From contig NZ_JAVDSL010000001.1 of the NCBI RefSeq assembly GCF_031455295.1, forward strand, positions 1,240,001 through 1,304,000: a stretch of DNA of 64,000 nucleotides, in the 5' to 3' direction. This document shows positions 4,936 to 23,729 of the stretch, piece after piece. The position numbers were made by a program, and so were the translations under genes. Source of the DNA: Leifsonia sp. 1010 (GTDB taxonomy: Bacteria > Actinomycetota > Actinomycetes > Actinomycetales > Microbacteriaceae). The notes below the pieces were generated by a model. The model did no database searches and was not told the DNA's origin. It was given only the letters and a program-made list of their open reading frames with translations. Positions within the stretch are counted from its first letter, which is position 1; each line of letters starts with the position of its first letter.

Positions 4936-7584
4936 CTACGGCGTCGCCGTGATCGACAGTCCGTCGAACTGGTTGATCGCCGACTGCGTCACGTCGTGCG
5001 ACGTCGAGAAGATTCCGGCGTCTTGCGTCGCTGCCGCGGAGGCGAGGGTGACCGGCGAGCCGATCGGCACGTAGTTGACGCCGTCGTAGGAGTACGACGC
5101 CGTGTACGACGTGCCCGTGCGCGCGAGCTTCACCCAGATCGGCCGGAAGACGTCGACCGACGCCTTCGCTTCCGTATCGAGGTAGCCGTCGCCGTTCGCA
5201 TCCCACTCGAACACCACCCCGTTGCGTGCCGTCACCGCGACGACCGCGTAGCCGGCCGACGAGCCGGCCTTCGTGATGTCGTTGCGGACCATCACGCCCG
5301 ACTTCGCCGAGGCGTTCGCGTCGTTCACCGACACGACCCGTGCCGAGACCGCAGAGTTCGCGGTGAACGACCCGGCCTTGTAGATCGCCCCGAACTGGTC
5401 GGAGTGCTGACCGCCCGCGCCCCACACGTCCGCTCCGGCCGCGGCGATCCCGTAGGCGTCACCGGCCTGTCCGAAGTACGAGCTGACCGCGGAGGAGCCG
5501 GCCGTCGACAGGCCTTTGACGGGCGCATCCACCGGGCAGCCGGTGAACCCGAACTGGTTGGCGTTGAGCGACGTCCGGTACTGCGGCGCCACACCGGCCG
5601 CGCAGATCACGTCACGGGCGCCGGCGGGCCAGTTGGCACCGGAGACCTTGACGTTGTTGACCAGCGTGTTGTTGTGGGCCGCGGCGTTCGGGGCCGAGAC
5701 CCCTCCGGAGTTGTACCAGTTGTTCTGGATGGTGTTGTCGCTGGTGTTGTTCCTCAGGCTGTAGGCGTTCGTGAAGACGAAGGAGCCGCCCTGGACCACG
5801 TTGTTCTCGTAGGTCATGTACCGCGATCCCTCGTCGAGGTAGAGCCCGACGCCCGAGATGTTGAACAGGTAGTTCTTGTCGACGACCGATCCGGGGCTGG
5901 CGGACAGGTTGTAGACCGAGCCGCCGTCTGCGAAACGCGCCTTCGTGTTGTGCACGAGATTGCCCTCGACCCGGTTGTCCTTCAGGGTCGTCGGCGTCGT
6001 GTAGAGCGTGTTCCATTTGTAGTAGCCGCGGTCGACGTAGTCGTTCGAGCCGCCCGCGTCGTTGATGCCCCAGCCGTAGCCGGTGTCGATCCCGTCGTAG
6101 GGGACGTTGGACACCTCGTTGTGCAGGATCTGGGCCCGCGTCACGTAGGTGCTCAGAATCCCGCTGTTGTCCTTGTAGTCCACCGACACCCGGTCGATCG
6201 TGTTGTCCTGGATGCGGATGTCCTGGTTGACCATGCGGGGATCGCTCGGGTGGTGCGCGTCGGGGAGGACGCCTCCGACCGCGATGCCGTGACCGCTGTC
6301 CTCCATGAACCGGTTGCCGACGACGGCGATGTTGCTGGCGCCGTAGCCGACTCCGTTCGCCATGGCGTTGGTGTCGTTTCCGATGCCGAGAGCCGACGAT
6401 CCGAGGTTCGCGAACGTGTTGCCGGTGAACGAGATGCGGCTCGCCGCCGACACCTGCACGGCTCCGGGCTCCTGGTACCAGCTGGTGCGGGCGCGCTCGA
6501 ACATCTCGCAACCGCGGGAGCAGCTGGTGAACGCGTCGGCGGGCCGGTAGTCGTAGGCGCCCTTGATGAAGAGGCCGTTCTGCTGGTCGGCGTAGCCGTC
6601 GGTCGACGGACCCAGCCACGAGGTGCCCGAGAACTGGATGCCCTCGAACGACAGACCGCTCACCGGCTTGTCGTAGGTGCCGCCGATGCTGATCAGCGAC
6701 TGCAGACGAGGCAGGTCGATGTCGAGCTTGTTGGGGTCGACCCCGTCGGCCGGCTTGTAGTACAGCTTTCCGCCGTGCGGGTCGATGTACCACTGGTTGG
6801 TCTGCGTGAGGAAGGCGAGCGAGTTGTCGAGGTACCAGCTCGGTCCGGCCAGGAAGGAGTTCTGGACGGTGTCCCAGCCCCAGGTGTTGTTGTCCCACGC
6901 CGGCTGCGCCATCGTGATCTCGGTCAGGCTGATGCTCTGGACCGGCGAGCAGCGGTTGGTGAAGTCGCCGAGGGACTCGAACTCGATGCGGCTCTGGTCG
7001 GGGAGCCCGGCGAGGTACGCGAGCGCCGGGTTCTTGATCGTCAGACCGGTGGCGGTCGGCGTCACGTCGGCGTTGGCCAGGCGGATGGATGCGCGCGGGG
7101 CGATCACGCCGTCGACGTAGAGCTGGCGGGTGTCGAGCCCCGCCGGGGTGTCGGCGACCCAGATCCCGGCGCCGGCATCCGACTTCGTCCAGCCGGAGAC
7201 GTCGGATGCTCCGCTGATGACCGGGTGCGCGCCGGGGGCGGCGGACCAGTGGACCGTGTTCGTGCCTCCGCCGTCGTCGGCGTCGAAGGTGAGGGGCTTG
7301 CTGAGGCGATACGTGCCGTCGGCCAGCTGCACGGTGACGTCACCGTGCTTGACCGATGGGCGCAGCACGTGCTGGGCGCGCTCGAGGGAGCACGGCTGCG
7401 ACTGGGAGCAGTGCCCGGCGTCCTTGCCGTCGGGCGCAGCGTAGAAGATGGTCGCCGGCGCGGCCTGCGCCTTGAGCGGGATCAGCGCGGAGGCGATGAC
7501 GGCTGCGGCTCCGAGGACCGCAAGCACTGCGGGTCGTCCTCGTCTCCTGGCCATCGATCGTCGCGAGTCTGACGTCAATGTCAT
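4936..7584 (-). CDS. Secreted right-handed beta-helix carbohydrate-active protein with C-terminal ConA-like domain
   Basis: 882 residues. The N-terminus has a basic stretch, a hydrophobic core and an AQA-AP cleavage site near residue 42, so the protein is exported. Residues about 45-690 begin with the FYAAPDGKDAG / SLERAQ / VQLADGTYRL pattern of right-handed beta-helix glycosidases and then carry many N-rich short repeats typical of parallel beta-helix coils. Residues about 700-880 look like a DUF1349/LamG-type beta-sandwich with a FEWDANGDGYLD motif. Its layout resembles GH141-like proteins, but I cannot prove a family or activity. Operator copies in its promoter tie it to the sugar-acid regulon, so it probably releases the sugar used there. 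An in-frame ATG ten codons in is an alternative start. Confidence 0.8.
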   Translation of the reverse strand: MTLTSDSRRSMARRRGRPAVLAVLGAAAVIASALIPLKAQAAPATIFYAAPDGKDAGHCSQSQPCSLERAQHVLRPSVKHGDVTVQLADGTYRLSKPLTFDADDGGGTNTVHWSAAPGAHPVISGASDVSGWTKSDAGAGIWVADTPAGLDTRQLYVDGVIAPRASIRLANADVTPTATGLTIKNPALAYLAGLPDQSRIEFESLGDFTNRCSPVQSISLTEITMAQPAWDNNTWGWDTVQNSFLAGPSWYLDNSLAFLTQTNQWYIDPHGGKLYYKPADGVDPNKLDIDLPRLQSLISIGGTYDKPVSGLSFEGIQFSGTSWLGPSTDGYADQQNGLFIKGAYDYRPADAFTSCSRGCEMFERARTSWYQEPGAVQVSAASRISFTGNTFANLGSSALGIGNDTNAMANGVGYGASNIAVVGNRFMEDSGHGIAVGGVLPDAHHPSDPRMVNQDIRIQDNTIDRVSVDYKDNSGILSTYVTRAQILHNEVSNVPYDGIDTGYGWGINDAGGSNDYVDRGYYKWNTLYTTPTTLKDNRVEGNLVHNTKARFADGGSVYNLSASPGSVVDKNYLFNISGVGLYLDEGSRYMTYENNVVQGGSFVFTNAYSLRNNTSDNTIQNNWYNSGGVSAPNAAAHNNTLVNNVKVSGANWPAGARDVICAAGVAPQYRTSLNANQFGFTGCPVDAPVKGLSTAGSSAVSSYFGQAGDAYGIAAAGADVWGAGGQHSDQFGAIYKAGSFTANSAVSARVVSVNDANASAKSGVMVRNDITKAGSSAGYAVVAVTARNGVVFEWDANGDGYLDTEAKASVDVFRPIWVKLARTGTSYTASYSYDGVNYVPIGSPVTLASAAATQDAGIFSTSHDVTQSAINQFDGLSITATP

Positions 7585-7636
7585 GTTCGATCGCTTCCTG
7601 TTCTGGAGGGCGTCGGTGCCCCCTGAACAGGGTTAG

Positions 7637-7675
7637 CATACGTATGATGTTTACTGCAAGAGACGTATGATGTTT
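7637..7675. promoter_or_regulatory. Two operator copies upstream of the beta-helix gene
   Basis: Site A, CATACGTATGATGTT (7637-7651), has a perfect 10-base palindrome core. Site B (7660-7674) shares ACGTATGATGTT(T). The two are direct copies 23 bases apart. Read on the minus strand, a TTGCAG hexamer precedes site A, so the site sits where a -35/-10 spacer would be. The same sequence recurs at 8723 and 12145. Confidence 0.75.
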
Positions 7676-7691
7676 GCGTGGACCTGAGCGA

Positions 7692-8678
7692 TCATGCCGG
7701 ATCGGGGGCGAGGCCCGCCGCATCCAACTCCTCCCAGAGGGCCTCCGGGATGTCCGCTCGGTAGCGCTCGACGGTGCTGCGCACATGGTCTTCCGTGCGC
7801 ATCCCTGTGACGACCGACACGACGGCGGGATGCCGCAGCGGGTACTGGATGGCGGCTGCGGGAAGGCTGACGCCGTGATCGCGGCAGGCGTCCGCGATCC
7901 GCCGTGCGCGCTCGACCACCTTCGCGGGCGCCGATCCGTAGTCGAAATGCGCAGCAGGGTCGATCGTCTCCGAGCTCAGCAGCCCGGAGTTGTAGACCGC
8001 CGCCGCGACGACACCGACGCCGCGTTCGGCCGCCAGGGGAAGCAGGTCGTCGAGCGCCGACGGGTCGAGCAGCGTGAAGCGGCCGGCCACCATGACCACG
8101 TCGACGTCGGTGCGGCGGACGAACTCCGCGAGCATCGCGGACTGGTTCATGCCGGCACCGATCGCTCCCACCACGCCCTGCTCGCGCAGCTCCACCAGTG
8201 CGTCGACGCCGGTGGTGGATGCGGCCGCCCAGTGGTCGTCCGGGTCGTGCAGGTAGGCCATGTCGAGCCGATCGGTGCCGAGTCGAGTGAGTGACTGCTC
8301 CACCGAGCGGAGGATGCCGTCGCGGCCGAAGTCCCAGACCCTGCGCGTGGCGGCCGGGACGACGAAGCCGTCGTCGTCGAGCCGGTCGGCGGTCTCCGGG
8401 CTGTCGACCAGCAGCCGTCCGACCTTGGAGGAGAGCGCGAAACCTGCGCGCGGCGTCTCGCCGAGGGCGCGACCGAGGCGGCGCTCGGAGAGGCCCAGCC
8501 CGTAGTGCGGCGCGGTGTCGAAGTACCGGAGGCCCTCCTCCCAGGCGGCGCCCACGGCGCCCTGAGCCTCCTCGTCGGTGGTCTCGCGGAAGAGGTTGCC
8601 GAGCTGGGCGGCGCCGAAGCCGAGTTCCGTCAGGTCGGTGCCGGTACGGAGGGTGCGGGTGGGCAGTGTCGGTGTCAT
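7692..8678 (-). CDS. Aldo/keto reductase, L-fucose/L-galactose (D-threo-aldose) 1-dehydrogenase-like
   Basis: 328 residues of TIM-barrel AKR type. The catalytic set is visible: D54 and Y59 in FDTAPHYG, K85 in SSKVGR, and an LHDPDD histidine further on. The GFGAAQLGNLFRETTDEEA opening is characteristic of the pyridoxal 4-dehydrogenase/L-fucose dehydrogenase branch, which oxidises an L-sugar C1 to the lactone with NAD(P). It is divergent from the Zn-dehydrogenase operon across a shared operator. Inferred role: the first oxidation of the pathway, feeding the lactonase at 16984. The exact substrate (L-galactose or L-fucose) cannot be read from the sequence. Confidence 0.85.
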   Translation of the reverse strand: MTPTLPTRTLRTGTDLTELGFGAAQLGNLFRETTDEEAQGAVGAAWEEGLRYFDTAPHYGLGLSERRLGRALGETPRAGFALSSKVGRLLVDSPETADRLDDDGFVVPAATRRVWDFGRDGILRSVEQSLTRLGTDRLDMAYLHDPDDHWAAASTTGVDALVELREQGVVGAIGAGMNQSAMLAEFVRRTDVDVVMVAGRFTLLDPSALDDLLPLAAERGVGVVAAAVYNSGLLSSETIDPAAHFDYGSAPAKVVERARRIADACRDHGVSLPAAAIQYPLRHPAVVSVVTGMRTEDHVRSTVERYRADIPEALWEELDAAGLAPDPA

Positions 8679-8722
8679 CGCAGGGCCTTCTTCGTCGGAG
8701 GAGCAGAATCGCTTCCTTTCAG

Positions 8723-8738
8723 CATACGTATTATGTTT
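8723..8738. promoter_or_regulatory. Operator copy in the divergent AKR / Zn-dehydrogenase promoter region
   Basis: CATACGTATTATGTTT matches the 7637 site at all but one of the first 15 positions. It lies between two divergent genes that start at 8678 and 8812 and could control both. Confidence 0.7.
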
Positions 8739-8811
8739 GGATCATTCGAGACGAGGACGTCACGCCGCGTCCGTTCCGGACAGGCGAGGGACGAGGAAGG
8801 AGCGGCCGGCG

Positions 8812-9828
8812 ATGTTGGCGGCGAACTACGCAGGCGAGCGCACGATCACGATCGAGGAGCGGGAGGCGGCGGAGCTGCGACCAGGCGAGGTGCGGATCGC
8901 CGTCGCGTACGCCGGGATCTGCGGCACCGACCTGCACATCTACCACGGCGACATGGATGCGCGGGTCACGCTGCCGGCCACGATCGGCCACGAGATGTCC
9001 GGCACGATCTCCGCGATCGGCCCGGACGTCGAGGGCTGGGCGGTCGGAGACGCGGTGACGGTCATGCCGCTGGCGTGGGACGGCACCTGTCCCGCCTGCC
9101 GGGCGGGCAACGAGCACATCTGCCAGAACCTCGACTTCATCGGCATCGACAGCCCCGGCGCCCTCCAGCAGAGCTGGAACGTCCCGGCCTCCACGCTCGT
9201 CCGCCTGCCGGACGGGGTGTCACTGCGGGACGCGGCGCTGGTCGAGCCGGTCGCGGTGGCCGTCCACGACGTGCGCCGGTCGGAGCTCGCCCCTGGCGAC
9301 CGGGCCGTCGTGATCGGCGCAGGTCCGATCGGCGTGCTCATCGCCACCGTCGCCAGCGCCTTCGGAGCCGAGGTCGTGATCGCGGAGATCGATCCCGGCC
9401 GCCGGGCCGCCGCGGAGGAGATGGGGCTGCGGACCCTCGACCCGAGTGCCGTTGACCAGGTCGCGTGGGTCGAGGAGTGGACCGGGGGAGCCGGCGCGGA
9501 CGTGGTGTTCGAGGTCTCCGGCTCGGCGGCGGCTGTGCTCGGCGCGACGTCGCTGGCGAAGGTCCGCGGCACACTGGTCGTCGTCGCAATCCACTCCCAG
9601 CCGCGGCCGATCGATCTGCACCGGGTGTTCTGGCGCGAGCTCCGCATCCTCGGAGCTCGCGTGTACCAGCGGCAGGACTTCGAGCGGGCGGTGGAGCTCG
9701 TCGCGGGTGGCGACATCCCCGCCGACCGGCTGATCACCCGGGTGGTTCCGCTCGCCGAGACGGCGTCGGCGTTCGAGGCACTGGAGGCCGGCGGAGCGAT
9801 GAAGATCCTCGTGGAGGTCGGCCGATGA
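8812..9828 (+). CDS. Zinc-dependent MDR dehydrogenase, probable sugar-acid 5-dehydrogenase
   Basis: 338 residues. Start at 8812, preceded by AGGAAGGAG. The catalytic zinc ligands appear as C37 (GICGTDLH) and H60-E61 (GHE). The NAD-binding Rossmann motif is GAGPIG. The structural zinc lobe reads DGTCPACRAGNEHIC, so only three of the usual four cysteines are present. First gene of an operon with the KduD-like dehydrogenase, aldolase and kinase, joined by an ATGA overlap. In known routes for L-galactonate, a dehydrogenase of this kind oxidises 2-keto-3-deoxy-L-galactonate at C5. That assignment is inferred from context. Confidence 0.85.
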   Translation: MLAANYAGERTITIEEREAAELRPGEVRIAVAYAGICGTDLHIYHGDMDARVTLPATIGHEMSGTISAIGPDVEGWAVGDAVTVMPLAWDGTCPACRAGNEHICQNLDFIGIDSPGALQQSWNVPASTLVRLPDGVSLRDAALVEPVAVAVHDVRRSELAPGDRAVVIGAGPIGVLIATVASAFGAEVVIAEIDPGRRAAAEEMGLRTLDPSAVDQVAWVEEWTGGAGADVVFEVSGSAAAVLGATSLAKVRGTLVVVAIHSQPRPIDLHRVFWRELRILGARVYQRQDFERAVELVAGGDIPADRLITRVVPLAETASAFEALEAGGAMKILVEVGR

Positions 9829-10586
9829 GCGGCTTCGACCTCTCCGGCCGGCTGGCGGTCGTCACCGGGGCGAAGCGCGGCATCGGTTTCGCGATCGCGG
9901 AGGCGCTCGCCGCGGCGGGCGCCGACATCGTCGGCGTCTCCGCGACCCTCGACCCCGAGGGCTCCGCGATCGGCGACCGGGTGCGGTCGCTCGGGCGGAG
10001 CTTCGAGGGGCACCGCGTCGACTTCGCCGACCGCGGCCAGGTCAGCGCGTTCGCCGCGGAGCTCGCCGCCCGCGACCGTCACGCCGACATCCTCGTGAAC
10101 AACGCCGGCACCATCCGGCGGGCCCCGGCGGCCGAACATCCGCTGGAGTGGTTCGACGAGGTGCTCGAGGTCGACCTGACGAGCGGGTTCGTGCTGAGCC
10201 AGGCGCTGGGCGGCCGGATGCTGGAAGCGGGCGGCGGCCGGATCGTCTTCACAGCCTCCCTGCTGTCGTTCCAGGGCGGCATCAACGTTCCCGGGTACGC
10301 CGCCGCGAAATCCGGGGTGGCCGGCCTCGTCCGCGCCCTCTCGAACGAGTGGGCCGGGAGGGGCGTGACGGTGAACGGCATCGCTCCCGGATACATCGCC
10401 ACCGACAACACCCAGGCTCTCCAAGACGACGAGGATCGCTCGCGGTCGATCCTCGAGCGCATCCCGGCCGGTCGATGGGGCACGCCGGAGGACATCGGGG
10501 GAGCGGCCGTGTTCCTCGCGTCCGACGCCGCCCGGTACGTCTCCGGGGCGATCCTTCCCGTCGACGGCGGGTGGCTCGGGCGATGA
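9825..10586 (+). CDS. kduD: KduD-like SDR, 2-dehydro-3-deoxy-D-gluconate 5-dehydrogenase
   Basis: 253 residues. Cofactor motif TGAKRGIG near residue 15, NNAG, a catalytic Ser after VFTA and the YAAAK active site. The late segment GYIATDNTQAL followed by RIPAGRWG is characteristic of KduD, which interconverts 2,5-diketo-3-deoxygluconate and 2-keto-3-deoxy-D-gluconate (KDG). It overlaps both neighbours by ATGA. Acting after the Zn-dehydrogenase, it would invert C5 and produce D-KDG. No KduI isomerase is in the window, which argues against a simple pectin/uronate route. Confidence 0.87.
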   Translation: MSGFDLSGRLAVVTGAKRGIGFAIAEALAAAGADIVGVSATLDPEGSAIGDRVRSLGRSFEGHRVDFADRGQVSAFAAELAARDRHADILVNNAGTIRRAPAAEHPLEWFDEVLEVDLTSGFVLSQALGGRMLEAGGGRIVFTASLLSFQGGINVPGYAAAKSGVAGLVRALSNEWAGRGVTVNGIAPGYIATDNTQALQDDEDRSRSILERIPAGRWGTPEDIGGAAVFLASDAARYVSGAILPVDGGWLGR

Positions 10587-11188
10587 CGGACTTCGAACCG
10601 ATCCTCCCCGTCGTCGTGATCGACGACGCGCGGGATGCCGAAGCGCTGGGTCGCGCGCTCCTCGCCGGCGGCATCCACCAGGCCGAGATCACGCTCCGGA
10701 CTCCGGCCGCTCGGGGCGCCCTGCGCACCCTGGCGGGGGTGCCGGGGTTGCGCGTCGGCGTCGGCACCGTCCTGGACCCGGAGCAGGCGGAGGCCGCGAT
10801 CGACGCCGGCGCCACCTTCGTCGTGAGCCCCGGGCTCTCCGAGTCCGTCCTCGCGGTGTGCGAGCGGCGCGGAGTGCACGCCGTTCCCGGCGCGGTGACG
10901 GCCACCGAGGTGATGCATGCCCGGTCGCTGGGGCTGCGCACGCTGAAGTTCTTCCCCGCCGAATCGTCGGGCGGGCCTGCGGCTGTGTCCGCGCTGTCCT
11001 CCGTGTTCCCGGACATCGCGTTCGTCCCGACCGGCGGCATCGACGCATCCAGCGCTGCCGGCTACCTCGCGCTGCCCTCCGTGATCGCCGTCGGCGGGAG
11101 TTGGATGGTGCCGCGCGCCGCCATCGCGGCCGGAGACTTCACCGGCATCGAGGTGCTGTGCCGGGCGGCGGTCGAGGCGGCGCGATGA
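10583..11188 (+). CDS. eda: 2-dehydro-3-deoxy-6-phosphogluconate (KDPG) aldolase
   Basis: 201 residues, the usual size for Eda. Residue E35 in AEITLRTP and the Schiff-base lysine K122 in LKFFPAE are present, and the C-terminal phosphate-binding glycine loop (PTGGIDASS) follows. The enzyme splits KDPG into pyruvate and glyceraldehyde-3-phosphate. ATGA overlaps on both sides place it between the KduD-like enzyme and KDG kinase in one translational unit. Function is well supported by sequence and context. Confidence 0.92.
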   Translation: MTDFEPILPVVVIDDARDAEALGRALLAGGIHQAEITLRTPAARGALRTLAGVPGLRVGVGTVLDPEQAEAAIDAGATFVVSPGLSESVLAVCERRGVHAVPGAVTATEVMHARSLGLRTLKFFPAESSGGPAAVSALSSVFPDIAFVPTGGIDASSAAGYLALPSVIAVGGSWMVPRAAIAAGDFTGIEVLCRAAVEAAR

Positions 11189-12135
11189 GCGGCCACGTGC
11201 TCACCTTCGGCGAGACCATGGGTCTCTTCCGTGCGACGGAGCTCGGCGGACTCGCCGACGTGGAGAGCGCGAGGATCGGCACCGGCGGCGCCGACAGCAA
11301 CGTCGCCATCGGCCTCAGCAGGCTCGGGATCCCGGCCGCCTGGGTCGGACGGGTCGGCGCCGACGGACTCGGGCGGAGGGTGGTGCAGGACATCCGCGGT
11401 CAGGGGGTGGATGCGCGCCCGATCGTCGATCCCGAGCATCCCACCGGGCTGATGATCAAGGAGAAGCGCACTCCGCACACCACCAAGGTGTGGTTCTACC
11501 GCTCGGGAAGCGCGGGCGGCCGGCTGCGGCCGGCGGACATCGACCGCGAGCTGATCGAGACCGCCGCGCTGGTGCACGTCACCGGTATCACCGCATCCAT
11601 CTCCGGGTCCGGTCGCGAGACCGTCCATGCCGTGCTGGACGCGGCACGCGCCGCGGGCGTCCCCGTGTCGTTCGACGTGAACCATCGGAAGGCGCTCTGG
11701 CCGAGTGGGGATCCGGCGCCGGTGTACCGGGAGGTCGCCGCATCCGCCGACGTGATCTTCGCGGGGGACGACGAGGCCGCCCTGCTTCTCGGCCTTCCCG
11801 CGGGCGACATCGCGGGCCTCGTCGACGGGATGCGCGCCCTCGGGCCGTCGACGGCGGTCCTGAAGCGCGGGGCGGCGGGCAGTGCGGCCTCCGACGGCGG
11901 AGCGCTCGTGGAGCATCCCGCGCGGCAGGTGCCGGTCGTCGACACGGTCGGCGCGGGCGATGCCTTCGTCGCGGGCTTCCTCGCGGCCCGCCTGCGCGGG
12001 GAGACGCTGCCCGAGTGCCTGGCCCTCGCTACGAGCGCGGGCGCGTTCGCGTGCCTCGGCTGGGGCGACTGGGAGAGCATGCCGCGGATGGACGAATTGG
12101 CGCTCCTCGACGACTCCGAGCCGGTGTCGCGCTGA
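11185..12135 (+). CDS. kdgK: 2-dehydro-3-deoxygluconate (KDG) kinase, PfkB family
   Basis: 316 residues of the ribokinase/PfkB fold. The N-terminal GGADSNVAIGLSRLG segment binds sugar, and DTVGAGDAFVAGF near residue 258 holds the catalytic Asp and the anion hole. It would phosphorylate KDG at C6 for the aldolase encoded just upstream. Last gene of the 8812-12135 operon. The need for a C6 hydroxyl is an argument that the sugar degraded here is not only 6-deoxy L-fucose. Confidence 0.9.
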   Translation: MSGHVLTFGETMGLFRATELGGLADVESARIGTGGADSNVAIGLSRLGIPAAWVGRVGADGLGRRVVQDIRGQGVDARPIVDPEHPTGLMIKEKRTPHTTKVWFYRSGSAGGRLRPADIDRELIETAALVHVTGITASISGSGRETVHAVLDAARAAGVPVSFDVNHRKALWPSGDPAPVYREVAASADVIFAGDDEAALLLGLPAGDIAGLVDGMRALGPSTAVLKRGAAGSAASDGGALVEHPARQVPVVDTVGAGDAFVAGFLAARLRGETLPECLALATSAGAFACLGWGDWESMPRMDELALLDDSEPVSR

Positions 12136-12139
12136 ACGC

Positions 12140-12169
12140 TTGGCAAACATCATACGTATGCCCTATAGT
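12140..12169 (+). promoter_or_regulatory. Sigma70-type promoter with the operator inside its spacer
   Basis: TTGGCA (12140-12145), an 18-base spacer, then TATAGT (12164-12169). The operator AAACATCATACGTATG (12145-12160) fills the spacer, so a bound repressor would block RNA polymerase. It drives the importer/dehydratase operon that starts at 12224. Confidence 0.75.
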
Positions 12170-12223
12170 CTGAATCACGCCTCCTCGGAGTCGTCAACGA
12201 AGTCGACAAGACAAGGACATCTC

Positions 12224-13597
12224 ATGGTCGGAATCCACACTGTGGTGCGTTCACGCCGTAGGCCGGCGCTGACCGTCGCCGCACTTGGCGCCGCGACGGC
12301 GCTCCTGGCCCTCACCGGTTGCAGTACCGGCGGGAGCTCGGCGAACGGGTCGTACGGCTTTCCCGAAGCCAAGCAGGACACCTCCTCGACGATCACCGTC
12401 TGGGTGGACGCGGACCGTCAGGCCGCGGCGAAGGCATTCGAGAAGGCGAACCCGGACACCAAGATCAAGGTCGTCACCTACGACGGGTCGGCCAACGGCT
12501 CCAACTCCTTCAGGACGAAGATGCAGCTCTTCGACCGCGCCGGCAGCGGCTGGCCGGACGTGGTCTTCTCCAGCCAGAACAACGACGCCGCCTGGGCGAG
12601 CCAGAAGAGCAACGGCAAGCAGGCCTTCGCCGCGGTGCTCGACAAGGGGCTCGTCCCCAAGGACACCCTCGACAACTTCACCGAGGGCGCCCTCAACCCC
12701 TGCACCGTCAACGGTCAGGTGTACTGCCTCCGCAACGACCTCGCCCAGGCCGTGCTCTGGTACGACAAGACCCTGATGGACAAGTTCGGCTACGCCGTCC
12801 CCACCACCTGGGAGGAGTACCAGGCGCTCGGCGAGAAGGTCGCGACCGAGCACCCCGGTTACATCATCGGAACCGCCGGTGACGCCTGGACGCCCGAGGT
12901 GTTCATGTGGGGCAGCAAGTGCCAGGCCAACGACATCACCGGCCCGAAGTCGGTGACCGTCAAGACCGACAGCACCGAGTGCAAGCGCGCCGCCACCCTG
13001 CTCGACACGCTCCGCGAGAACAAGACGGTCCCGGCCGTCAGCGTCTTCACCCCGGAGTTCGTCAAGAGCTACGCGGGCAGGGTGCTGATGATGCCCGGCC
13101 CGGCCTGGTACGCCGGCGCCATCTTCAACAACCCGCAGTCGCTGAACGTGCCCGCGGGCGAGCTCGGCGTCGCTGCCCCGCTGCCCTGGAAGGGCGAGGA
13201 CAAGGCCGTGACCGGCAACGTCGGCGGCGGCACCTGGTTCATCTCCAGCCACTCCAAGAACCTTAAGGCCGCCGAGAAGTTCGCGCAGTTCGTGACGACC
13301 TCCGACGACTACCAGGTGGATGTCGCCCCCGGCTACCCGGCGTACGCGCCGGCGGCCAAGAAGTGGGTCGAGAAGCAGGAGGCCAGCAAGTACTACGCCA
13401 CCTCGCTGCAGCCGGTCGTCACGGCCGCTTCGCAGGTGTGGGACGGCTGGGGGTTCGGCATCTTCAGCCAGGAGGCGGTCTGGGCCAAGACGATGACCCC
13501 GGCCATCACCGGCGGGAAGTCGATCGAGAGCCTGCTGCCGACCTGGCAGGAAGCCATCGCGAACCAGGCCAAGGTCGACGGATACAAGGTGAACTGA
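12224..13597 (+). CDS. Sugar ABC transporter substrate-binding lipoprotein
   Basis: 457 residues, starting at 12224 after an AAGGA box. Signal peptide with the lipobox LTGC near residue 28, so it is anchored outside the membrane. The mature part has the ITVWVDADRQAAAKAFEKA opening of group-1 (MalE-like) binding proteins. Longer in-frame starts upstream fall inside kdgK and are rejected. It precedes two permeases and three pathway enzymes in one operon behind the operator-bearing promoter. The ligand is inferred to be the sugar or a short glycoside released outside. Confidence 0.92.
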   Translation: MVGIHTVVRSRRRPALTVAALGAATALLALTGCSTGGSSANGSYGFPEAKQDTSSTITVWVDADRQAAAKAFEKANPDTKIKVVTYDGSANGSNSFRTKMQLFDRAGSGWPDVVFSSQNNDAAWASQKSNGKQAFAAVLDKGLVPKDTLDNFTEGALNPCTVNGQVYCLRNDLAQAVLWYDKTLMDKFGYAVPTTWEEYQALGEKVATEHPGYIIGTAGDAWTPEVFMWGSKCQANDITGPKSVTVKTDSTECKRAATLLDTLRENKTVPAVSVFTPEFVKSYAGRVLMMPGPAWYAGAIFNNPQSLNVPAGELGVAAPLPWKGEDKAVTGNVGGGTWFISSHSKNLKAAEKFAQFVTTSDDYQVDVAPGYPAYAPAAKKWVEKQEASKYYATSLQPVVTAASQVWDGWGFGIFSQEAVWAKTMTPAITGGKSIESLLPTWQEAIANQAKVDGYKVN

Positions 13598-13598
13598 C

Positions 13599-14540
13599 AT
13601 GACCCTCGCTCCACCGAGCGACCAGCTGGCCGCCGGCGCCCCTGAGCGCCGGCGGTCGGCCCGGCTTCGCGGCCGGGCACCGGGACGCACGCCCATCGGC
13701 TACGTCTTCGTCTCGCTCTACGCCCTGCTCGCCATCGCCTTCGGCATCCTGCCCGCCCTGTACGCGGTGCTGCTCGCCTTCACCCGGGCGGACGGCGGAT
13801 TCGCCGGCATCGACAACTTCATCACGGTCGTCACCGACTTCCGGTTCTGGCCGGCCGTGCTGCACGTGACGATCTACCTCGTCATCTGGCTGATCGGCCT
13901 GGTGGTGTTCGTCGTGCTGCTCGCGCTCGTGGTCCACGCCCTGCGCGTGCGCTGGGCGAGCACGAGCCTCCGGTTCATCTACTACCTGCCGGGGGCGCTC
14001 GCCGGCGCCTCCAGCGTCCTGCTCTGGCTGTTCGTGCTCGACCCGACGGCCAGCCCGGTCAGCGGACTGCTCCGGCTGATGGGCCTGAACAGCTTTGTGC
14101 AAGTCATCCAGCCCGGCAACCTTCCTGCCATCTTCGCCATCATCGCGTTCTGGACGGGCGCGGGCGGCTGGATCGTCATCATGTACGGCGCGCTCAACAA
14201 CATCAGCACCGACGTGATCGAGGCGGCGCGCATCGACGGGGCCAACGCCGTGCAGATCGCCCTCCGCATCCAACTGCCGATGCTGCGCAAGTGGATCGCG
14301 TACATGGGGGTGATGTCGCTGGCGGCCGGCACGCAGCTGTTCGTCGAGCCCCAGTTGCTCAGCCAGGCGAGCAACGCCGTGGTCCCCAACGACTACTCGC
14401 TCAACCAGCTCGCCTACCAGTACGCGTTCCAGCAGAACGACTTCAACGGCGCCGCCGCGATCTCACTGCTGCTGCTGATCGTCGCGCTCCTGCTGTCCTG
14501 GGTGTTCGTCACCCGCGGCGGCCTGTTCGAGAAGGAATGA
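13599..14540 (+). CDS. Sugar ABC transporter permease (MalF-like)
   Basis: 313 residues. The start is one base after the binding-protein stop. A basic N-terminus precedes about six membrane segments, and the EAA loop (EAARIDGANAVQIALRIQLP) lies in the C-terminal third. Pairs with the next gene, whose start region overlaps its stop. Confidence 0.93.
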   Translation: MTLAPPSDQLAAGAPERRRSARLRGRAPGRTPIGYVFVSLYALLAIAFGILPALYAVLLAFTRADGGFAGIDNFITVVTDFRFWPAVLHVTIYLVIWLIGLVVFVVLLALVVHALRVRWASTSLRFIYYLPGALAGASSVLLWLFVLDPTASPVSGLLRLMGLNSFVQVIQPGNLPAIFAIIAFWTGAGGWIVIMYGALNNISTDVIEAARIDGANAVQIALRIQLPMLRKWIAYMGVMSLAAGTQLFVEPQLLSQASNAVVPNDYSLNQLAYQYAFQQNDFNGAAAISLLLLIVALLLSWVFVTRGGLFEKE

Positions 14541-14542
14541 CC

Positions 14543-15445
14543 ATGACCGCACTCACCGCAGAGCGCCGCCGCGCCAGTCTGCGCGGCTGGAGCGGACGCT
14601 CCATCGCGGGCGTCATCCTCGCCGTCTTCGTGCTGTTCTTCGCCATCCCGATCGTCTGGCTGCTCTTCGCGGTGACCAAGTCGTCCAAGGCGCTGATCGT
14701 CGCCAACCCGTTCTCGATCGGCTCGTGGTCGGACTTCGTCGCCAACTGGAACCAGCTGTTCGGCTTCCAGGACGGCGCGGTGACGCTGTGGATCGGCAAC
14801 TCGGCGCTGTACTCGATCGGCGCGCTGATCATCACGCTGATCGTCAGCATCCCGGCCGGCTACGCGCTGGCGCTGACCGAGTTCCGGCTCCGCAAGGCGC
14901 TGCTCGTGCTCACCCTCGTCGTCATGCTCATCCCGAGCACGGCGCTGGTGCTGCCGATCTTCCTGGAGCTCAACAGCGTCGGCCTGATCGGGAGTCCGCT
15001 GTCGGTGATCCTGCCGATGTCGTTCTTCCCGTTCGGCGTCTACCTGACGTACATCTACTTCTCGACGAGCATCCCGCGCGACCTGCTCGCAGCCGCGCGG
15101 ATCGACGGCTGCACCGAGTTCCAGGTGTTCACCAGGGTCGCACTTCCGCTGGCCGCTCCGATCGTCGCGCTGGTGGCGTTCTTCAGCTTCGTGCAGAACT
15201 GGAACAACTTCTTCCTGCCGTTCGTCATGCTCCCCTCGAGCGACGGCTACCCGATCCAGGTCGGGCTGACCTCGCTGCTGTCGGCGACCCCGGCCTTCAA
15301 CCCCAGTTCGGCGGGTTCCGACTCGGTCCAGCTGCCGACGTTGGCGCTGGCGACGATCGTGTCGATCCTGCCCGTCCTGATCGTCTTCCTGTTCTCGCAG
15401 CGGTTCCTCGTCTCGGGGATGACCGCGGGAGGGACCAAGGAATGA
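14543..15445 (+). CDS. Sugar ABC transporter permease (MalG-like)
   Basis: 300 residues. The ATG at 14543 is preferred because GAAGG lies 7 bases upstream; an in-frame ATG at 14537 overlaps the previous stop. About six membrane segments and the EAA loop (AAARIDGCTEFQVFTRVALP). There is no ATPase gene in the cassette, as in the other two sugar importers of this window. Confidence 0.92.
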   Translation: MTALTAERRRASLRGWSGRSIAGVILAVFVLFFAIPIVWLLFAVTKSSKALIVANPFSIGSWSDFVANWNQLFGFQDGAVTLWIGNSALYSIGALIITLIVSIPAGYALALTEFRLRKALLVLTLVVMLIPSTALVLPIFLELNSVGLIGSPLSVILPMSFFPFGVYLTYIYFSTSIPRDLLAAARIDGCTEFQVFTRVALPLAAPIVALVAFFSFVQNWNNFFLPFVMLPSSDGYPIQVGLTSLLSATPAFNPSSAGSDSVQLPTLALATIVSILPVLIVFLFSQRFLVSGMTAGGTKE

Positions 15446-15473
15446 GCACGTCCGCACCGAAGGAGAACCACCG

Positions 15474-16652
15474 ATGAAGATCACGGGCTATCGCAGTCTG
15501 AGCACCGTCCACGACTGGGGCCGGGTCACCGGCGACGTCAACGGCGTGCAGACGGGCAACACGACGCCCGTCCCCGTGCTGCTCATCGAGACCGACAGCG
15601 GTATCGAAGGGGTCGGGGTCGGAGCGCATGCCGACATCGCCCGGGTGTTCCCGGCGGTCGAGGGGGAAGATCCCCGATCGGTCGTCGCCCTCTACGACCG
15701 GATGCTCGACTGGGTGTTCAAGGCCGGCCACTCCGGGACCACGTTCGGCACGATCGGCGCCATCGATATGGCGTTGTGGGACCTCAAGGCGAAGGCGGCG
15801 GACGAGCCGCTCTGGCGGATGCTCGGTGCGCGCGAGCGGTTCGTGCCCGGGTACGCCTCCGGACTCGAGTACGGCCTGACCGACGACGAGCTGTCCGACC
15901 TCTACGGCCGGTTCGCCGACCGCGGGTTCAAGGCGGGCAAGCTGAAGGGCGGCCGCGACCTCGACCGCGACCTCCCGCGCTTGGAGTTGTTGCGCGACAT
16001 CCTCAGCCGCAACTCACGGCATCCCGCACTCATGTTCGACGTCAACGAGTCGTGGAACCACGCGCAGGCCGCACGCTATGTCGGCGCCATCGAGGAGCGC
16101 CTCGACCTCACCTGGATCGAGGAGCCCCTGCGCCGATGGGATGCGGCGGGCATGTCCTCGCTGCGCGGCAAGATCCGCGCGGCCGTGGCGAGCGGCGAGA
16201 ACCTGACCGGCCTGGAGCAGTACCGGCCGCTGCTCGACAGCGGAGCGGTGGATGTCGTCCAGGTCGGCAACGTCTGGGGCATCACGCACCTGCTCCGCGT
16301 CGCGACCCTCGCCCACGGGCACGACCTGCCGGTGAGCCCGGTCACCTACAACACCAACCCGGCCGCCCATGCCGCCGCCGCCATCCCCAACCTGCTCACG
16401 CACGAGGTGCAGGACCTCTCCTTCCCCGTCGGCCTCGACGTGGACCAGGAGTTCGACGACGGCGGCATCGTCCTCGGCGACCGCCCGGGGATCGGCATCA
16501 TCGTGGACGAGGCCAAGCTGACGGGGGAGGGCGGAACGCCCGCTCCTCCCGCGACCGGTCCGCACATCCGCCCGGAGCGCGCCGCACTGCGGCTGGTGGC
16601 CGAGCCGGATGTCATCGACGACCCGACCGTGCCGCTGAGGCCGGTCTCGTGA
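15474..16652 (+). CDS. Enolase-superfamily (mandelate racemase-like) sugar-acid dehydratase
   Basis: 392 residues, start at 15474 after AAGGAG. The metal ligands are visible: D189 (FDVNESW), E216 (WIEEP) and E242 (ASGENL). The KxK base motif is K156/K158 (GKLKGG). By eye alignment, the Asp-His dyad of mandelate racemase is replaced by Q263 and V290, which is unusual. Flanked by importer, mutarotase and lactonase genes, it is inferred to dehydrate L-galactonate or L-fuconate to the 2-keto-3-deoxy acid. The family is firm; the substrate is not. Confidence 0.85.
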   Translation: MKITGYRSLSTVHDWGRVTGDVNGVQTGNTTPVPVLLIETDSGIEGVGVGAHADIARVFPAVEGEDPRSVVALYDRMLDWVFKAGHSGTTFGTIGAIDMALWDLKAKAADEPLWRMLGARERFVPGYASGLEYGLTDDELSDLYGRFADRGFKAGKLKGGRDLDRDLPRLELLRDILSRNSRHPALMFDVNESWNHAQAARYVGAIEERLDLTWIEEPLRRWDAAGMSSLRGKIRAAVASGENLTGLEQYRPLLDSGAVDVVQVGNVWGITHLLRVATLAHGHDLPVSPVTYNTNPAAHAAAAIPNLLTHEVQDLSFPVGLDVDQEFDDGGIVLGDRPGIGIIVDEAKLTGEGGTPAPPATGPHIRPERAALRLVAEPDVIDDPTVPLRPVS

Positions 16653-16987
16653 GCGGCGAGCCGCAGCGCTTCGCCTTCGTCGTCGGCGTCCGGCCCGAGA
16701 AGCGCGAGGAGTACCTCGAACTGCACAGCGCCGTGTGGCCGGGCGTCGAGGCGAAGCTGACCGAGTGCAACATCCGCAACTACAGCATCTTCGTCTTCGG
16801 CGACATCCTCTTCGCCTACTACGAGTACGTCGGCGACGATCACGCCGCCGACATGCAGCGGATCGCGGACGACCCGGTGTCGCAGGAGTGGTGGACCCAC
16901 ACCGACCCGTGCCAGGTCCGGATCGCCGACGAACGCGACCCGGGCTCCCTCTGGCAGCCGATCGACGAAGTGTGGCACCTGCGATGA
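16649..16987 (+). CDS. L-rhamnose/L-fucose mutarotase (RhaM type)
   Basis: 112 residues from a GTG that overlaps the dehydratase stop (GTGA). The segments LHSAVWPGV, NYSIF and a WWTHTDPCQ end are typical of RhaM-like dimeric mutarotases, which interconvert alpha and beta anomers of L-sugars. The presence of this family argues for an L-sugar as the pathway substrate. The stop overlaps the next ATG, so all three catabolic genes are coupled. Confidence 0.85.
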   Translation: MSGEPQRFAFVVGVRPEKREEYLELHSAVWPGVEAKLTECNIRNYSIFVFGDILFAYYEYVGDDHAADMQRIADDPVSQEWWTHTDPCQVRIADERDPGSLWQPIDEVWHLR

Positions 16988-17817
16988 CCGACCGGATCGA
17001 CGCGCACGTGCACCTGTGGGACCGCTCCACCGATCCGCAGGACTGGATCGATCCGGTCACGATGCCGGCGATCGACCGCGACTTCGGCACGGACGACCTG
17101 CAGGGGATGCTGGCGGCGACGGGGATGGACCGCGCCGTGCTGGTGCAGGCGAGCAACAGCCTCGAGGAGAGCGTCCGGCTCTCGCGAAGCGACCCGCAGG
17201 TCGTGGCGGGCCTGGTCGCCTGGGTCGACCTCGCGGAGGACGTCGGCGCCCAGCTCGATGAGGTGCGTGCGGGATCGATTCCGGTCGTCGGCATCCGGCA
17301 TCTGGCCCACATCGACCCGGACCCCGAGTGGATGCTGCGCGCCGACACCGCCGCCGGTCTCGCCGCCCTCGGTCGCGAAGGGCTGGTCTTCGATCTCGTG
17401 ATCCGCGACTGGCAGCTGGAGCAGGCGGCGCGCGTCGCCGCCCGCAACGACGGCGTCTCGTTCGTGCTCGACCACCTCGGCGGTCCGCTCGCCGAGGACG
17501 CGGAGGCGTCGCGATGGGAGGCGGGGCTGCGTGCGCTCGCGGCCCTCCCTAACGTCTCGGCCAAGGTCTCCGGGCTCACGTCGGGGCTGGTGTCGGGCAC
17601 GTGGACGGCCGACGACCTTCGCGGTATCGTCTCGACGGCGCTGGAGGCGTTCGGTCCCGACCGCCTGCTCTACGGCTCCGACTGGCCGCTCGCCGAGCTC
17701 GGCGGTGGCGCTCCCGCGTGGCGCGCGGCGTTCGACACGCTGGTCTCCGAACTGTCTCCGGCAGAGCAGGACGCCCTGCTGGGCGGCAACGCGGTCCGGG
17801 TCTACTCGCTCGCCTGA
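16984..17817 (+). CDS. Amidohydrolase-family sugar lactonase (L-fuconolactonase-like)
   Basis: 277 residues. The N-terminal DAHVHLWD metal-binding motif, VGIRHL, an LDHLGGP strand and the terminal YGSDWPL motif match the amidohydrolase_2 lactonases that open L-fucono- and L-rhamnono-lactones. Start at 16984 by ATGA overlap with the mutarotase. Inferred to hydrolyse the lactone made by the AKR at 7692, giving the acid used by the dehydratase. Its 3' end overlaps the convergent GntR gene by 16 bases. Confidence 0.87.
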   Translation: MTDRIDAHVHLWDRSTDPQDWIDPVTMPAIDRDFGTDDLQGMLAATGMDRAVLVQASNSLEESVRLSRSDPQVVAGLVAWVDLAEDVGAQLDEVRAGSIPVVGIRHLAHIDPDPEWMLRADTAAGLAALGREGLVFDLVIRDWQLEQAARVAARNDGVSFVLDHLGGPLAEDAEASRWEAGLRALAALPNVSAKVSGLTSGLVSGTWTADDLRGIVSTALEAFGPDRLLYGSDWPLAELGGGAPAWRAAFDTLVSELSPAEQDALLGGNAVRVYSLA

Positions 17818-18593
17818 ACCTCTTCGCGCGCCTGGTCCGGCCGGGCGCCGGGCGCGTGATCCGGAAGCCGGCGACGCTCCCACGAGATGTGGATGTGATC
17901 GTGCATGGCCCGCTCGGCGGCGGCCGCATCCCCGCTGGCGATGGCCTCGACGATGGCCGCGTGCTCGTCCAGGGTCAACGCAACGGCGTCCGGCGGGTTG
18001 ATGCCCTGGTACCGGCTGGACTCGACGGCCCTCTTGTAGAGGTGCTTGGCGATGTTCTCGGCGAGGCGGTTGCCGGAGATCTCCATGAGCGCGTAGTGGA
18101 AGACCACGTCGGCCTGCCGGAAGGAGTCCGTCTCCGACTCGCTCTCGCGCATCGCCGTGAGCGCGTTCTCGAGGCGCCGGAGTCCGTCGGCCGTGTGGGA
18201 GCGGGCGACAGCGCCCGCCATCGCCGATTCCAGGCTCGCGCGCACGACGGTCAGCTCATCGAGCACGCCGAGGCTCTCGTCGTTGTCGATGAGGGCCGAG
18301 AGCACCACCGGGTCGAGCATGTTCCAGTAGCCGGGCGCCTGGACCTGCGTGCCGCGGCCCTGGGACACGATCACCAGGCCCTTCTCCTCCAGCCGCTTCA
18401 CGGACTCGCGGAGGACCGTGCGGCTGACCCCGAAGTGCTCGCTCAGCGGGCCCTCCGGCGGCAGGAGGTCGCCCTCCTTCAGCTGGCCCGTGACGATGAT
18501 CTCGACGAGCTCGGCGACGACGGCGACGCCCAGTCGCGCGGCGGGCAGCCGCTGCGGGATGAGCCGGGCTGCAGCGTCGGAGTCGGTCGCCAT
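17802..18593 (-). CDS. GntR-family regulator, FadR/FCD subfamily
   Basis: 263 residues. The ATG at 18593 was chosen; longer frames run into the GH35 gene. N-terminal winged helix (LPPEGPLSEHFGVSRTVLRE, then a wing ending in GRGTQVQ), followed by an all-helical FCD ligand domain with the DVVFHYALMEISGN metal-site helix. Such regulators sense sugar acids and other carboxylates. It sits tail-to-tail with the catabolic operon, and a near match to the regulon operator covers its own start codon. It is the best candidate regulator for the CATACGTATG sites (inference). Confidence 0.9.
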   Translation of the reverse strand: MATDSDAAARLIPQRLPAARLGVAVVAELVEIIVTGQLKEGDLLPPEGPLSEHFGVSRTVLRESVKRLEEKGLVIVSQGRGTQVQAPGYWNMLDPVVLSALIDNDESLGVLDELTVVRASLESAMAGAVARSHTADGLRRLENALTAMRESESETDSFRQADVVFHYALMEISGNRLAENIAKHLYKRAVESSRYQGINPPDAVALTLDEHAAIVEAIASGDAAAAERAMHDHIHISWERRRLPDHAPGARPDQAREEVQASE

Positions 18594-18605
18594 AGGTATG
18601 ACCTT
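18591..18605. promoter_or_regulatory. Variant of the regulon operator at the gntR start
   Basis: CATAGGTATGACCTT matches 12 of 15 positions of the site at 7637. The first CAT is the gntR start codon on the minus strand. It could be an autoregulatory site. The match is good but the position makes chance possible. Confidence 0.45.
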
Positions 18606-20374: not shown

Positions 20375-20397
20375 GGTTCTCCTGAAAGGTGGGAAGG

Positions 20398-20432
20398 CCG
20401 TGGCCGGCCGCGGCGTGCGCGACCGGCCACGG
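20398..20432 (-). terminator. Hairpin after the binding-protein gene
   Basis: Perfect 10-base arms (20398-20407, 20423-20432) around 15 bases, between the binding-protein stop and the GH35 start. There is no T-run. It may attenuate read-through or protect the upstream message. Confidence 0.5.
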
Positions 20433-20443
20433 AGGTACTGCTC

Positions 20444-21790: not shown

Positions 21791-21840
21791 GAGCTTCCTT
21801 TCACTTCTTCGTGGAATGAGATTGCGGATGGGGGATGGGG

Positions 21841-23699: not shown

Positions 23700-23729
23700 G
23701 TCTTCCCTGGGTTCGAGATCGGTGTGCGG

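What the first reader, a model, noticed from the sequence alone, without database searches (positions are those of the whole stretch)
7692..17817. Near-complete non-phosphorylative L-sugar pathway, best explained as L-galactose to KDPG
The enzymes fit one line: mutarotase (16649), AKR 1-dehydrogenase (7692), lactonase (16984), enolase-family dehydratase (15474), Zn-dehydrogenase at C5 (8812), KduD-like reductase (9825), KDG kinase (11185) and KDPG aldolase (10583). L-fucose catabolism would not need a C6 kinase, because its keto-deoxy acid has no C6 hydroxyl. L-galactose uses every gene. Known partial versions of such routes exist in other phyla; the single-regulon actinobacterial arrangement may be undescribed.
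Basis: partly seen in the sequence, partly recalled or inferred. Interest (0 to 1): 0.75.

Follow-up and report, generated by a model that had tools for sequence, protein, structure and literature searches.

The report
Bacterial L-galactose breakdown gene cluster
A Leifsonia-like actinobacterium appears to carry one regulated gene set that frees, imports and breaks down L-galactose, the six-hydroxyl twin of L-fucose, by joining the start of a known L-fucose route to the end of a known agar-sugar route; the chemistry still has to be tested.

Summary
They belong to a larger regulon, window 4936-18593, that adds a secreted GH141-type glycosidase, an ABC importer and a GntR regulator, joined by a CATACGTATG operator whose only two exact copies in the 3.9-Mb genome are here and which recurs at the same promoters in close relatives. 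Three results favour L-galactose over L-fucose. (1) The genome has a separate L-fucose locus with true FucD, GH29 and GH95. (2) The Zn-dehydrogenase/KduD-like pair has its closest found counterpart outside Actinomycetota beside 3,6-anhydro-L-galactonate cycloisomerase, where L-2-keto-3-deoxygalactonate must be inverted at C5. (3) Two related loci carry this exit with kinase and aldolase beside a separate 6-deoxy-sugar exit. Against: kinase and aldolase are in only 6 of 80 related loci, and the enolase-superfamily enzyme lacks the usual His-Asp dyad. No activity is shown. I saw no description of this arrangement in the held library (some lists capped).

The parts
4936..7584 (-). Secreted right-handed beta-helix glycosidase, GH141-type (882 aa); predicted to release alpha-linked L-galactose or L-fucose
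   Evidence: Profile of 5 orthologues against PDB: GH141 BT_1002 (5MQP) 150 bits in all; D553 and D584 align to the catalytic Asp pair, within a weak piece of 17.5 bits (pair named in PMC10154630 passages). Pfam GH141_M 24.6 bits, below its cut-off of 27. Operator at 7637.
7637..7646 (.). Operator CATACGTATG upstream of the GH141-type gene
7692..8678 (-). Aldo/keto reductase: predicted L-galactose (L-fucose-type) 1-dehydrogenase
   Evidence: Best PDB hits are L-galactose dehydrogenases; 52% identical paralogue in the own-genome L-fucose locus
8723..8732 (.). Operator CATACGTATT between the divergent AKR and Zn-dehydrogenase genes
8812..9828 (+). Zn-dependent MDR dehydrogenase: predicted 2-keto-3-deoxy-L-galactonate 5-dehydrogenase (EC 1.1.1.389 type)
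   Evidence: 49-51% identical to enzymes beside a KduD-like SDR in three gammaproteobacterial loci, two of them also beside a cycloisomerase-type enolase; the L124 enzyme's best match in the own genome by 338 against 101 bits
9825..10586 (+). [quoted passage not shown]
   Evidence: TIGR01832 kduD 302.8 bits, cut-off 338.85; 59-67% identical to the SDR of the pair in L122-L124; PDB 4Z9Y
10583..11188 (+). KDPG aldolase (Eda type)
   Evidence: TIGR01182 220 bits, above cut-off 156
11185..12135 (+). PfkB sugar kinase: predicted KDG kinase
   Evidence: Best PDB 1V19 KDG kinase, 159.9 bits; NCBIfam models below cut-off
12151..12160 (.). Operator CATACGTATG before the transporter-enolase operon
12224..13597 (+). 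ABC sugar-binding lipoprotein (457 aa)
   Evidence: Pfam SBP_bac_1 80 bits; frame and start checked, match in 51 of 80 related loci
13599..14540 (+). ABC permease 1
   Evidence: Pfam BPD_transp_1 27.7 bits, just above cut-off 26.4
14543..15445 (+). ABC permease 2
   Evidence: Pfam BPD_transp_1 66.1 bits
15474..16652 (+). Enolase-superfamily (MR_MLE) enzyme: predicted L-galactonate (L-fuconate-type) dehydratase
   Evidence: Pfam MR_MLE; KxK K156/K158 and carboxylates D189, E216/E217, E242 kept, His-Asp dyad absent
16649..16987 (+). L-fucose-type sugar mutarotase
   Evidence: 7BYU L-fucose mutarotase 113.7 bits
16984..17817 (+). Amidohydrolase-type aldonolactonase
   Evidence: NF052480 fuconolactonase 172.6 bits, cut-off 400; 4DLF
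17802..18593 (-). GntR/FCD regulator, presumed repressor of the regulon
   Evidence: Pfam GntR + FCD; an operator-like site overlaps its start
18591..18600 (.). Operator-like site CATAGGTATG (one mismatch) at the regulator's own start

Best explanation
One GntR-controlled regulon for L-galactose. A secreted GH141-type enzyme frees L-galactose from a glycan; an ABC importer takes it up; a mutarotase and the AKR give L-galactonolactone; the lactonase gives L-galactonate; the enolase-superfamily enzyme dehydrates it to L-2-keto-3-deoxygalactonate (L-KDGal). The Zn-enzyme oxidises C5 and the KduD-like SDR reduces it with the opposite stereochemistry, giving D-KDG. [quoted passage not shown] Shown here: gene content, families, operator sites, homology and synteny. 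Inferred: every substrate, repression by the GntR protein, and that L-galactose is the physiological sugar.
For: (1) Family and best-structure hits fit each step. (2) The same genome holds a distinct L-fucose locus: FucD (598 bits to 1YEY), AKR paralogue (52%), lactonase (41%), an SDR (58%) and FAH hydrolase (61%) like those of L104, FMN dehydrogenase, GH29 and GH95. (3) Three of 274 genomes of the class of Biostraticola (Gammaproteobacteria) have the Zn-DH at 49-51%, each beside the SDR (59-67%). In L124 the adjacent enolase is AHG cycloisomerase (492 bits to 5XD7) and a KdgK is near (298 bits); the L122 one is 66% identical to it; L123 has none in view. That is the published L-KDGal to KDG route (PMC5943477, PMC10163077, passages). 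(4) L048 and L104 carry both a 6-deoxy-sugar exit (FAH + SDR) and C5 pair + kinase + aldolase; L053 carries both exits without kinase and aldolase. (5) Among 34 chosen genomes, a separate FucD is present in 21 of 22 whose locus has only the C5 exit, against 5 of 10 with a 6-deoxy-sugar exit (Fisher p 0.006, no correction for kinship). (6) Operator conserved at the same promoters.
Against: Kinase + aldolase are in only 6 of 80 related loci (loci end at 10 kb or at contig ends). 5 of 26 genomes searched, all five with the C5 pair, have no kinase match at E <= 1e-40, although all 26 have an aldolase match. The enolase clade also sits with 6-deoxy-sugar exits in 14 of 80 loci; that exit could be for L-rhamnose as well as L-fucose, since the hydrolase model is named for L-rhamnonate and L085 has an alpha-L-rhamnosidase-like neighbour (807 bits, below cut-off 1720). 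The enolase lacks the dyad kept in FucD and the cycloisomerases, so its reaction is uncertain. Fetched locus L113 has no AKR match and L114 no AKR, Zn-DH or SDR match. GH141 has no reported alpha-L-galactosidase in the passages I read (PMC10154630). No expression or growth data.
Confidence: 0.67

Rival explanations
1. L-galactose, but C5 inversion comes first: Zn-DH makes D-tagaturonate from L-galactonate, the SDR makes D-altronate, and the enolase dehydrates D-altronate to KDG, as in Luteolibacter and Bacteroides with different enzymes.
For: The Luteolibacter L-galactose route is said to run through tagaturonate and altronate (PMC12632266, first of six parts read). D-altronate shares C2-C4 with L-galactonate, and a D-arabinonate dehydratase accepts both weakly (PMC6336799 passages).
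Against: The closest C5 pair found outside Actinomycetota stands beside the AHG cycloisomerase, whose product is already the keto-deoxy acid; the SDR is nearest to KduD; the enolase clade also occurs with exits that need no earlier C5 step.
Confidence: 0.1
2. Dual use: the upper enzymes serve L-fucose as well as L-galactose, the L-fucose-derived keto-deoxy acid leaving through the second locus at about 1.58 Mb, and both sugars may induce the regulon.
For: An AKR-superfamily aldose dehydrogenase accepts D-arabinose, L-fucose and L-galactose (PMC6336799 passages). Mutarotase and lactonase score best with L-fucose models. L048, L053 and L104 hold both exits in one locus. GH141 is listed as a fucosidase family.
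Against: The own genome has a second set of AKR, lactonase and dehydratase in the L-fucose locus, and the window has no FAH, DapA or FucO match at E <= 1e-5, only distant SDR matches outside the cluster.
Confidence: 0.13
3. The sugar is another C6-hydroxylated one, for example 3,6-anhydro-L-galactose, or L-mannose if the enolase clade is rhamnonate-like.
For: The C5 pair is shared with the AHG route. The clade's 6-deoxy exit may be for L-rhamnose, whose C6-hydroxyl analogue is L-mannose (stereochemistry recalled).
Against: The enolase is not the cycloisomerase (29% identity, 84 bits), no aldehyde dehydrogenase is among the cluster proteins scanned, and mutarotase and lactonase have no place in AHG oxidation. 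C5 inversion of the L-mannose product would give D-KDGal, but the aldolase is Eda-like (220 bits) rather than KDPGal aldolase (88 bits).
Confidence: 0.07

Closest known systems
Oxidative L-fucose pathway (Xanthomonas type, 'Route III')
   Same: Mutarotase, 1-dehydrogenase, amidohydrolase-type lactonase and an enolase-superfamily dehydratase.
   Different: No C4 dehydrogenase/hydrolase or aldolase exit at this locus; a C5 dehydrogenase/reductase, kinase and KDPG aldolase instead; the dehydratase is not FucD. The genome has a FucD-type locus elsewhere.
3,6-anhydro-L-galactose pathway of agar degraders (EC 1.1.1.389 plus KduD-like reductase)
   Same: Homologous, syntenic Zn-DH and SDR pair; KDG kinase and KDPG aldolase downstream.
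   Different: L-KDGal would come from L-galactonate by dehydration, not from anhydro-galactonate by cycloisomerisation.
L-galactose pathways of Luteolibacter LG18 and Bacteroides vulgatus
   Same: Same sugar; Luteolibacter has the same KDG/KDPG end.
   Different: Luteolibacter passes through D-tagaturonate and D-altronate (Bacteroides likewise, recalled); this one is predicted to dehydrate first with different enzymes.
GH141 (BT_1002)
   Same: Parallel beta-helix family; both catalytic Asp aligned.
   Different: Substrate unknown; about 280 C-terminal residues lie outside the aligned part.

Membership tests
Oxidative L-fucose pathway (Route III) | FucD-family L-fuconate dehydratase in the locus | tested here: not met
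   Window enolase about 66 bits to 1YEY/2HNE; own-genome FucD is elsewhere, 598 bits
Oxidative L-fucose pathway (Route III) | KDF 4-dehydrogenase plus hydrolase, or KDF aldolase, in the locus | tested here: not met
   No FAH, DapA or FucO match in the 64-kb window; SDR4 queries match only the KduD-like SDR and distant SDRs near 29.1-30.9 kb at 25-37%; FAH and SDR4 types are at L116
Oxidative L-fucose pathway (Route III) | L-fucose-type mutarotase and lactonase | tested here: met
   Best hits; the lactonase model is below its cut-off
AHG pathway | L-KDGal 5-dehydrogenase and 2,5-diketo reductase pair | tested here: met
   Homology and synteny only:
AHG pathway | AHG dehydrogenase (ALDH) and cycloisomerase in the locus | tested here: not met
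   No ALDH family among the 13 cluster proteins scanned; enolase 29% to cycloisomerase
Tagaturonate-type L-galactose pathway | UxaA-type altronate dehydratase in the locus | tested here: not met
   No such family among the 13 cluster proteins scanned
Mandelate-racemase subgroup of the enolase superfamily | KxK base motif and three carboxylate metal ligands | tested here: met
   K156, K158, D189, E216/E217, E242 at 97% or more of 81 members, invariant in 34
Mandelate-racemase subgroup of the enolase superfamily | His-Asp dyad | tested here: not met
   Asp falls in a two-residue deletion, His is Val or Ile, in all 14 family members printed; both kept in FucD and both cycloisomerase-type enzymes
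GH141 | Homology to BT_1002 with both catalytic Asp | tested here: met
   the Asp lie in a weak piece (17.5 bits), and Pfam GH141_M is just below its cut-off
GH141 | Activity on an alpha-L-fucosyl or alpha-L-galactosyl link | not testable with these tools
   Needs an assay
KDPG aldolase (eda, TIGR01182) | Curated score | tested here: met
   220 against 156 bits
KduD (TIGR01832) | Curated score | tested here: inconclusive
   302.8 against 338.85 bits
KDG kinase | Curated score | tested here: inconclusive
   Below the cut-offs; best PDB is a KDG kinase

The most novel reading that the evidence does not exclude
A dehydration-first L-galactose pathway in Actinomycetota that runs L-galactonate to L-KDGal to KDG to KDPG under one regulator, using an uncharacterised enolase-superfamily dehydratase family without the His-Asp dyad and a GH141-family alpha-L-galactosidase; in some relatives one locus forks by the C6 group, 6-deoxy product to pyruvate and lactate and 6-hydroxy product to KDPG.
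Probability: 0.45. Interest if true: 0.68.

Novelty: new variant of a known kind. Interest (0 to 1): 0.55.

Why it matters
A 2024 review says that the fate of L-KDGal in E. coli is unresolved and that bacterial L-KDGal catabolism needs more study (PMC11219438 passages), although agar papers assign a dehydrogenase pair to it. A terrestrial regulon in which that pair follows a plain L-galactose route gives ready enzymes to test it. It would also extend L-galactose use (plant RG-II, mucilages, red algae; recalled) to Actinomycetota, and would give a dehydratase family with an unknown general acid and a possible alpha-L-galactosidase.

Tried and rejected
Rejected: L-fucose as the sole substrate (separate L-fucose locus; no exit for a 6-deoxy acid in the window). 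D-arabinose (C5 is then a primary alcohol, and no pentonate exit family was among the proteins scanned). AHG as substrate (no ALDH; the enolase is not the cycloisomerase). L-rhamnose for the window (mutarotase closer to the L-fucose type). The idea that kinase and aldolase are core was weakened: most relatives lack them in the cluster, and 4 of 6 inspected SDR-SBP gaps hold short kinase-like fragments (L039, L044, L045, L047, E from 3e-4 to 8e-14; not L032, L049).

Limits: the related loci are the best 80 of 441, with at most 10 kb flanks, so absences are not proof. 'SDR4' is my label for the SDR that stands beside the FAH hydrolase; its C4 activity is inferred. The FucD comparison used 34 genomes that I chose; two (L041, L042, neither exit seen) were left out of the 2x2 count, and L062, which has an FAH match at 40% but no SDR4, was counted as C5-only. 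Thresholds differ between (FAH + SDR4 in 14 of 80; 13 of 80, L089 dropped). The binding-protein query was out of frame; one search repeated it in frame and found the same places (50 of 50; 51 of 80 loci in all), so the SBP identities should be ignored. The tree clusters enolases by exit type more than shuffled labels do (0 of 200 as low), but 33 rows in no group were not counted and near-copies inflate this. One search noted one TAG within the FAH match of L048; the alignment (to residue 281 of 286) shows none. My simple gene caller misplaced some frames in high-GC loci.


Full report
What is there. The window lies at G000:C1:1240001-1304000 of a 3.88-Mb genome. Its enolase is closest to four named Leifsonia loci (88-89% identity), so I call the organism Leifsonia-like; it is not named. 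The unit is wider than 7692-17817. It starts with a GH141-type gene (4936-7584) and ends with a GntR/FCD regulator (17802-18593), with an ABC importer (12224-15445; Pfam) in the middle. The enolase is sporadic: 25 of 199 genomes drawn from the own family have it at E <= 1e-60.

Regulon. CATACGTATG with at most one mismatch occurs four times in the window (0.32 expected; 0 of 100 shuffles reach four): before the GH141-type gene, between AKR and Zn-DH, before the transporter-enolase operon, and on the regulator's start. Exact copies occur at only two places in the genome, both here. In the 23 closest named loci (L032-L054) every locus has at least two ATACGTAT sites, against 0.02-0.08 expected per locus. 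They lie within 200 bases before GH141L in 17 of 23, between AKR and Zn-DH in 19, before the binding protein in 20 and at or near the regulator start in 14. Over all 80 loci, 22 have no site, so the operator is not universal in the clade.

Assignments. The AKR's five best solved relatives are L-galactose dehydrogenases. The mutarotase is L-fucose type. The lactonase's only NCBIfam match is fuconolactonase, under its cut-off, as is the SDR's best model, KduD. The kinase's best solved relative is KDG kinase. The aldolase passes the eda cut-off. The GH141-type protein matches BT_1002 at 150 bits, with both catalytic aspartates aligned in a weak piece of 17.5 bits; that pair is named in PMC10154630 (passages), and I matched the numbering by counting along the alignment with an offset of five.

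A separate L-fucose locus. At about 1.5685-1.5921 Mb of the same genome (L115, L116) lie FucD (598 bits to 1YEY), an AKR 52% identical to the window's, a lactonase (41%), an SDR 58% and an FAH hydrolase 61% identical to those of L104, an FMN-dependent dehydrogenase, probably lactate-oxidising, a GH29 and a GH95. The hydrolase's model is named for L-rhamnonate (258 bits, below cut-off 500); I read the locus as L-fucose from FucD, GH29 and GH95. L-fucose therefore seems to have its own route, and the window locus repeats its upper half with a different lower half.

The lower half. Among 274 genomes of the class of G224 (Biostraticola; Gammaproteobacteria), 4 had a Zn-DH match at E <= 1e-45, three of them 49-51% identical. 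I fetched those three; in each the KduD-like SDR (59-67%) is adjacent. In L124 the adjacent enolase scores 492 bits against AHG cycloisomerase 5XD7, and a KdgK is beside it (298 bits). In L122 the adjacent enolase is 66% identical to the L124 one. L123 has none in view. Searching the L124 Zn-DH back against the own genome gives the window gene at 338 bits, next best 101. Papers on agar degraders assign such a pair to L-KDGal to 2,5-diketo acid to KDG (PMC5943477, PMC10163077; passages).

Comparison across 80 loci. The C5 pair is in 40, kinase plus aldolase in 6, kinase alone in 1, FAH + SDR4 in 14, a GH141-type gene in 48. Of the 40 C5 loci, 38 have an AKR, 34 a lactonase, 32 a mutarotase, 38 a GntR and 31 a GH141-type match. 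Three loci have both exits: L048 and L104 with kinase and aldolase, L053 without. L107 has a DapA-family aldolase and a lactaldehyde reductase (672 bits), a sign of a 6-deoxy sugar, L-fucose or L-rhamnose. L085 has an alpha-L-rhamnosidase-like neighbour, so in some relatives the sugar may be L-rhamnose. The simplest reading is an upper half shared by a 6-deoxy and a 6-hydroxy sugar, and an exit chosen by C6: deoxy to lactate or lactaldehyde, hydroxy to KDPG. Two further fetched loci are less complete: L113 has no AKR match, L114 no AKR, Zn-DH or SDR match. All 26 genomes searched have an aldolase match and 21 of 26 a kinase at E <= 1e-40. The five without are L032, L033, L035, L045 and L046; these count against a uniform KDG-kinase route unless a more distant kinase serves. 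Kinase-like fragments stand in 4 of 6 inspected gaps, which suggests loss.

FucD test (34 genomes chosen by me). Of 22 genomes whose locus has only the C5 exit, 21 have a FucD elsewhere (not L063). Of 10 with a 6-deoxy-sugar exit at the locus (three both, six FAH + SDR4 only, L107), 5 lack FucD (L048, L085, L092, L107, L108). Fisher p 0.006, with no correction for kinship. This suggests the enolase family can stand in for FucD where it sits with such an exit, and does something else where FucD is kept. L053 and L104, which have both exits and FucD, do not follow the pattern.

The enolase. KxK and the metal carboxylates are kept in at least 97% of 81 members. In the 14 members printed, the Asp of the usual dyad falls in a two-residue deletion and the His is Val or Ile, while FucD and both cycloisomerase-type enzymes keep them. 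Its best solved relative is Mll7089 (2OZ8, 128.9 bits), whose function I do not know. The dehydratase role therefore rests on context, not on the known catalytic set.

Known or new. Searches of the held library (19 of 19 listed; 20 of 37; 20 of 24; 14 of 14; 30 of 50; 15 of 257) gave a bacterial L-galactose route in Luteolibacter (PMC12632266; first of six parts and passages) and, by its citation, in Bacteroides vulgatus (paper not held). There is also an unpublished L-galactonate dehydratase of Acidovorax noted in PMC6336799 (passages) and L-fuconate/L-galactonate co-location in Halomonas (PMC5507952; passages). I saw none for this arrangement in Actinomycetota. Subscription papers are mostly not held, so this is not proof of novelty. 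Each half is known; the join, the regulon and the enolase family appear new. I rate it a new variant of a known kind.

Noticed in passing
L115 and L116 (own genome, about C1:1568500-1592100): A second locus, read as L-fucose, with FucD, AKR, lactonase, SDR, FAH hydrolase, FMN dehydrogenase, GH29, GH95 and GH36.
   Followed up: yes
15474-16652 and its 80 relatives: Enolase subfamily lacking both His and Asp of the mandelate-racemase dyad (14 members inspected), with invariant W268, G269 and a conserved T271-H272.
   Followed up: partly
L039, L044, L045, L047, between SDR and binding-protein genes: Short fragments similar to the KDG-kinase gene in four Streptomycetaceae loci.
   Followed up: partly
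L112 (own genome, about C1:1651050-1653900): A third cluster with another enolase-superfamily enzyme (24%), an aldolase (36%) and a kinase (48% to the window kinase).
   Followed up: partly
18611-24885: GH35 beta-galactosidase next to further ABC transporter genes and a LacI regulator on the far side of the GntR gene; no CATACGTATG site there, so probably a separate unit.
   Followed up: no
34610-41125: Long RHS/YD-repeat protein with DUF6531 (21 RHS stretches).
   Followed up: no
26-3595: ABC permease gene(s), a LacI-like sensor-domain protein and a ROK-family regulator, another sugar-uptake unit.
   Followed up: no
L115:11651-13477: A further enolase paralogue in the L-fucose locus, 38% to the AHG cycloisomerase of L124 and 286 bits to the talarate/galactarate dehydratase model; role unknown.
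   Followed up: no
L085:2003-5209: Alpha-L-rhamnosidase-like gene (807 bits, below cut-off) next to a GH141-type gene and an enolase of this family in Asticcacaulis.
   Followed up: no
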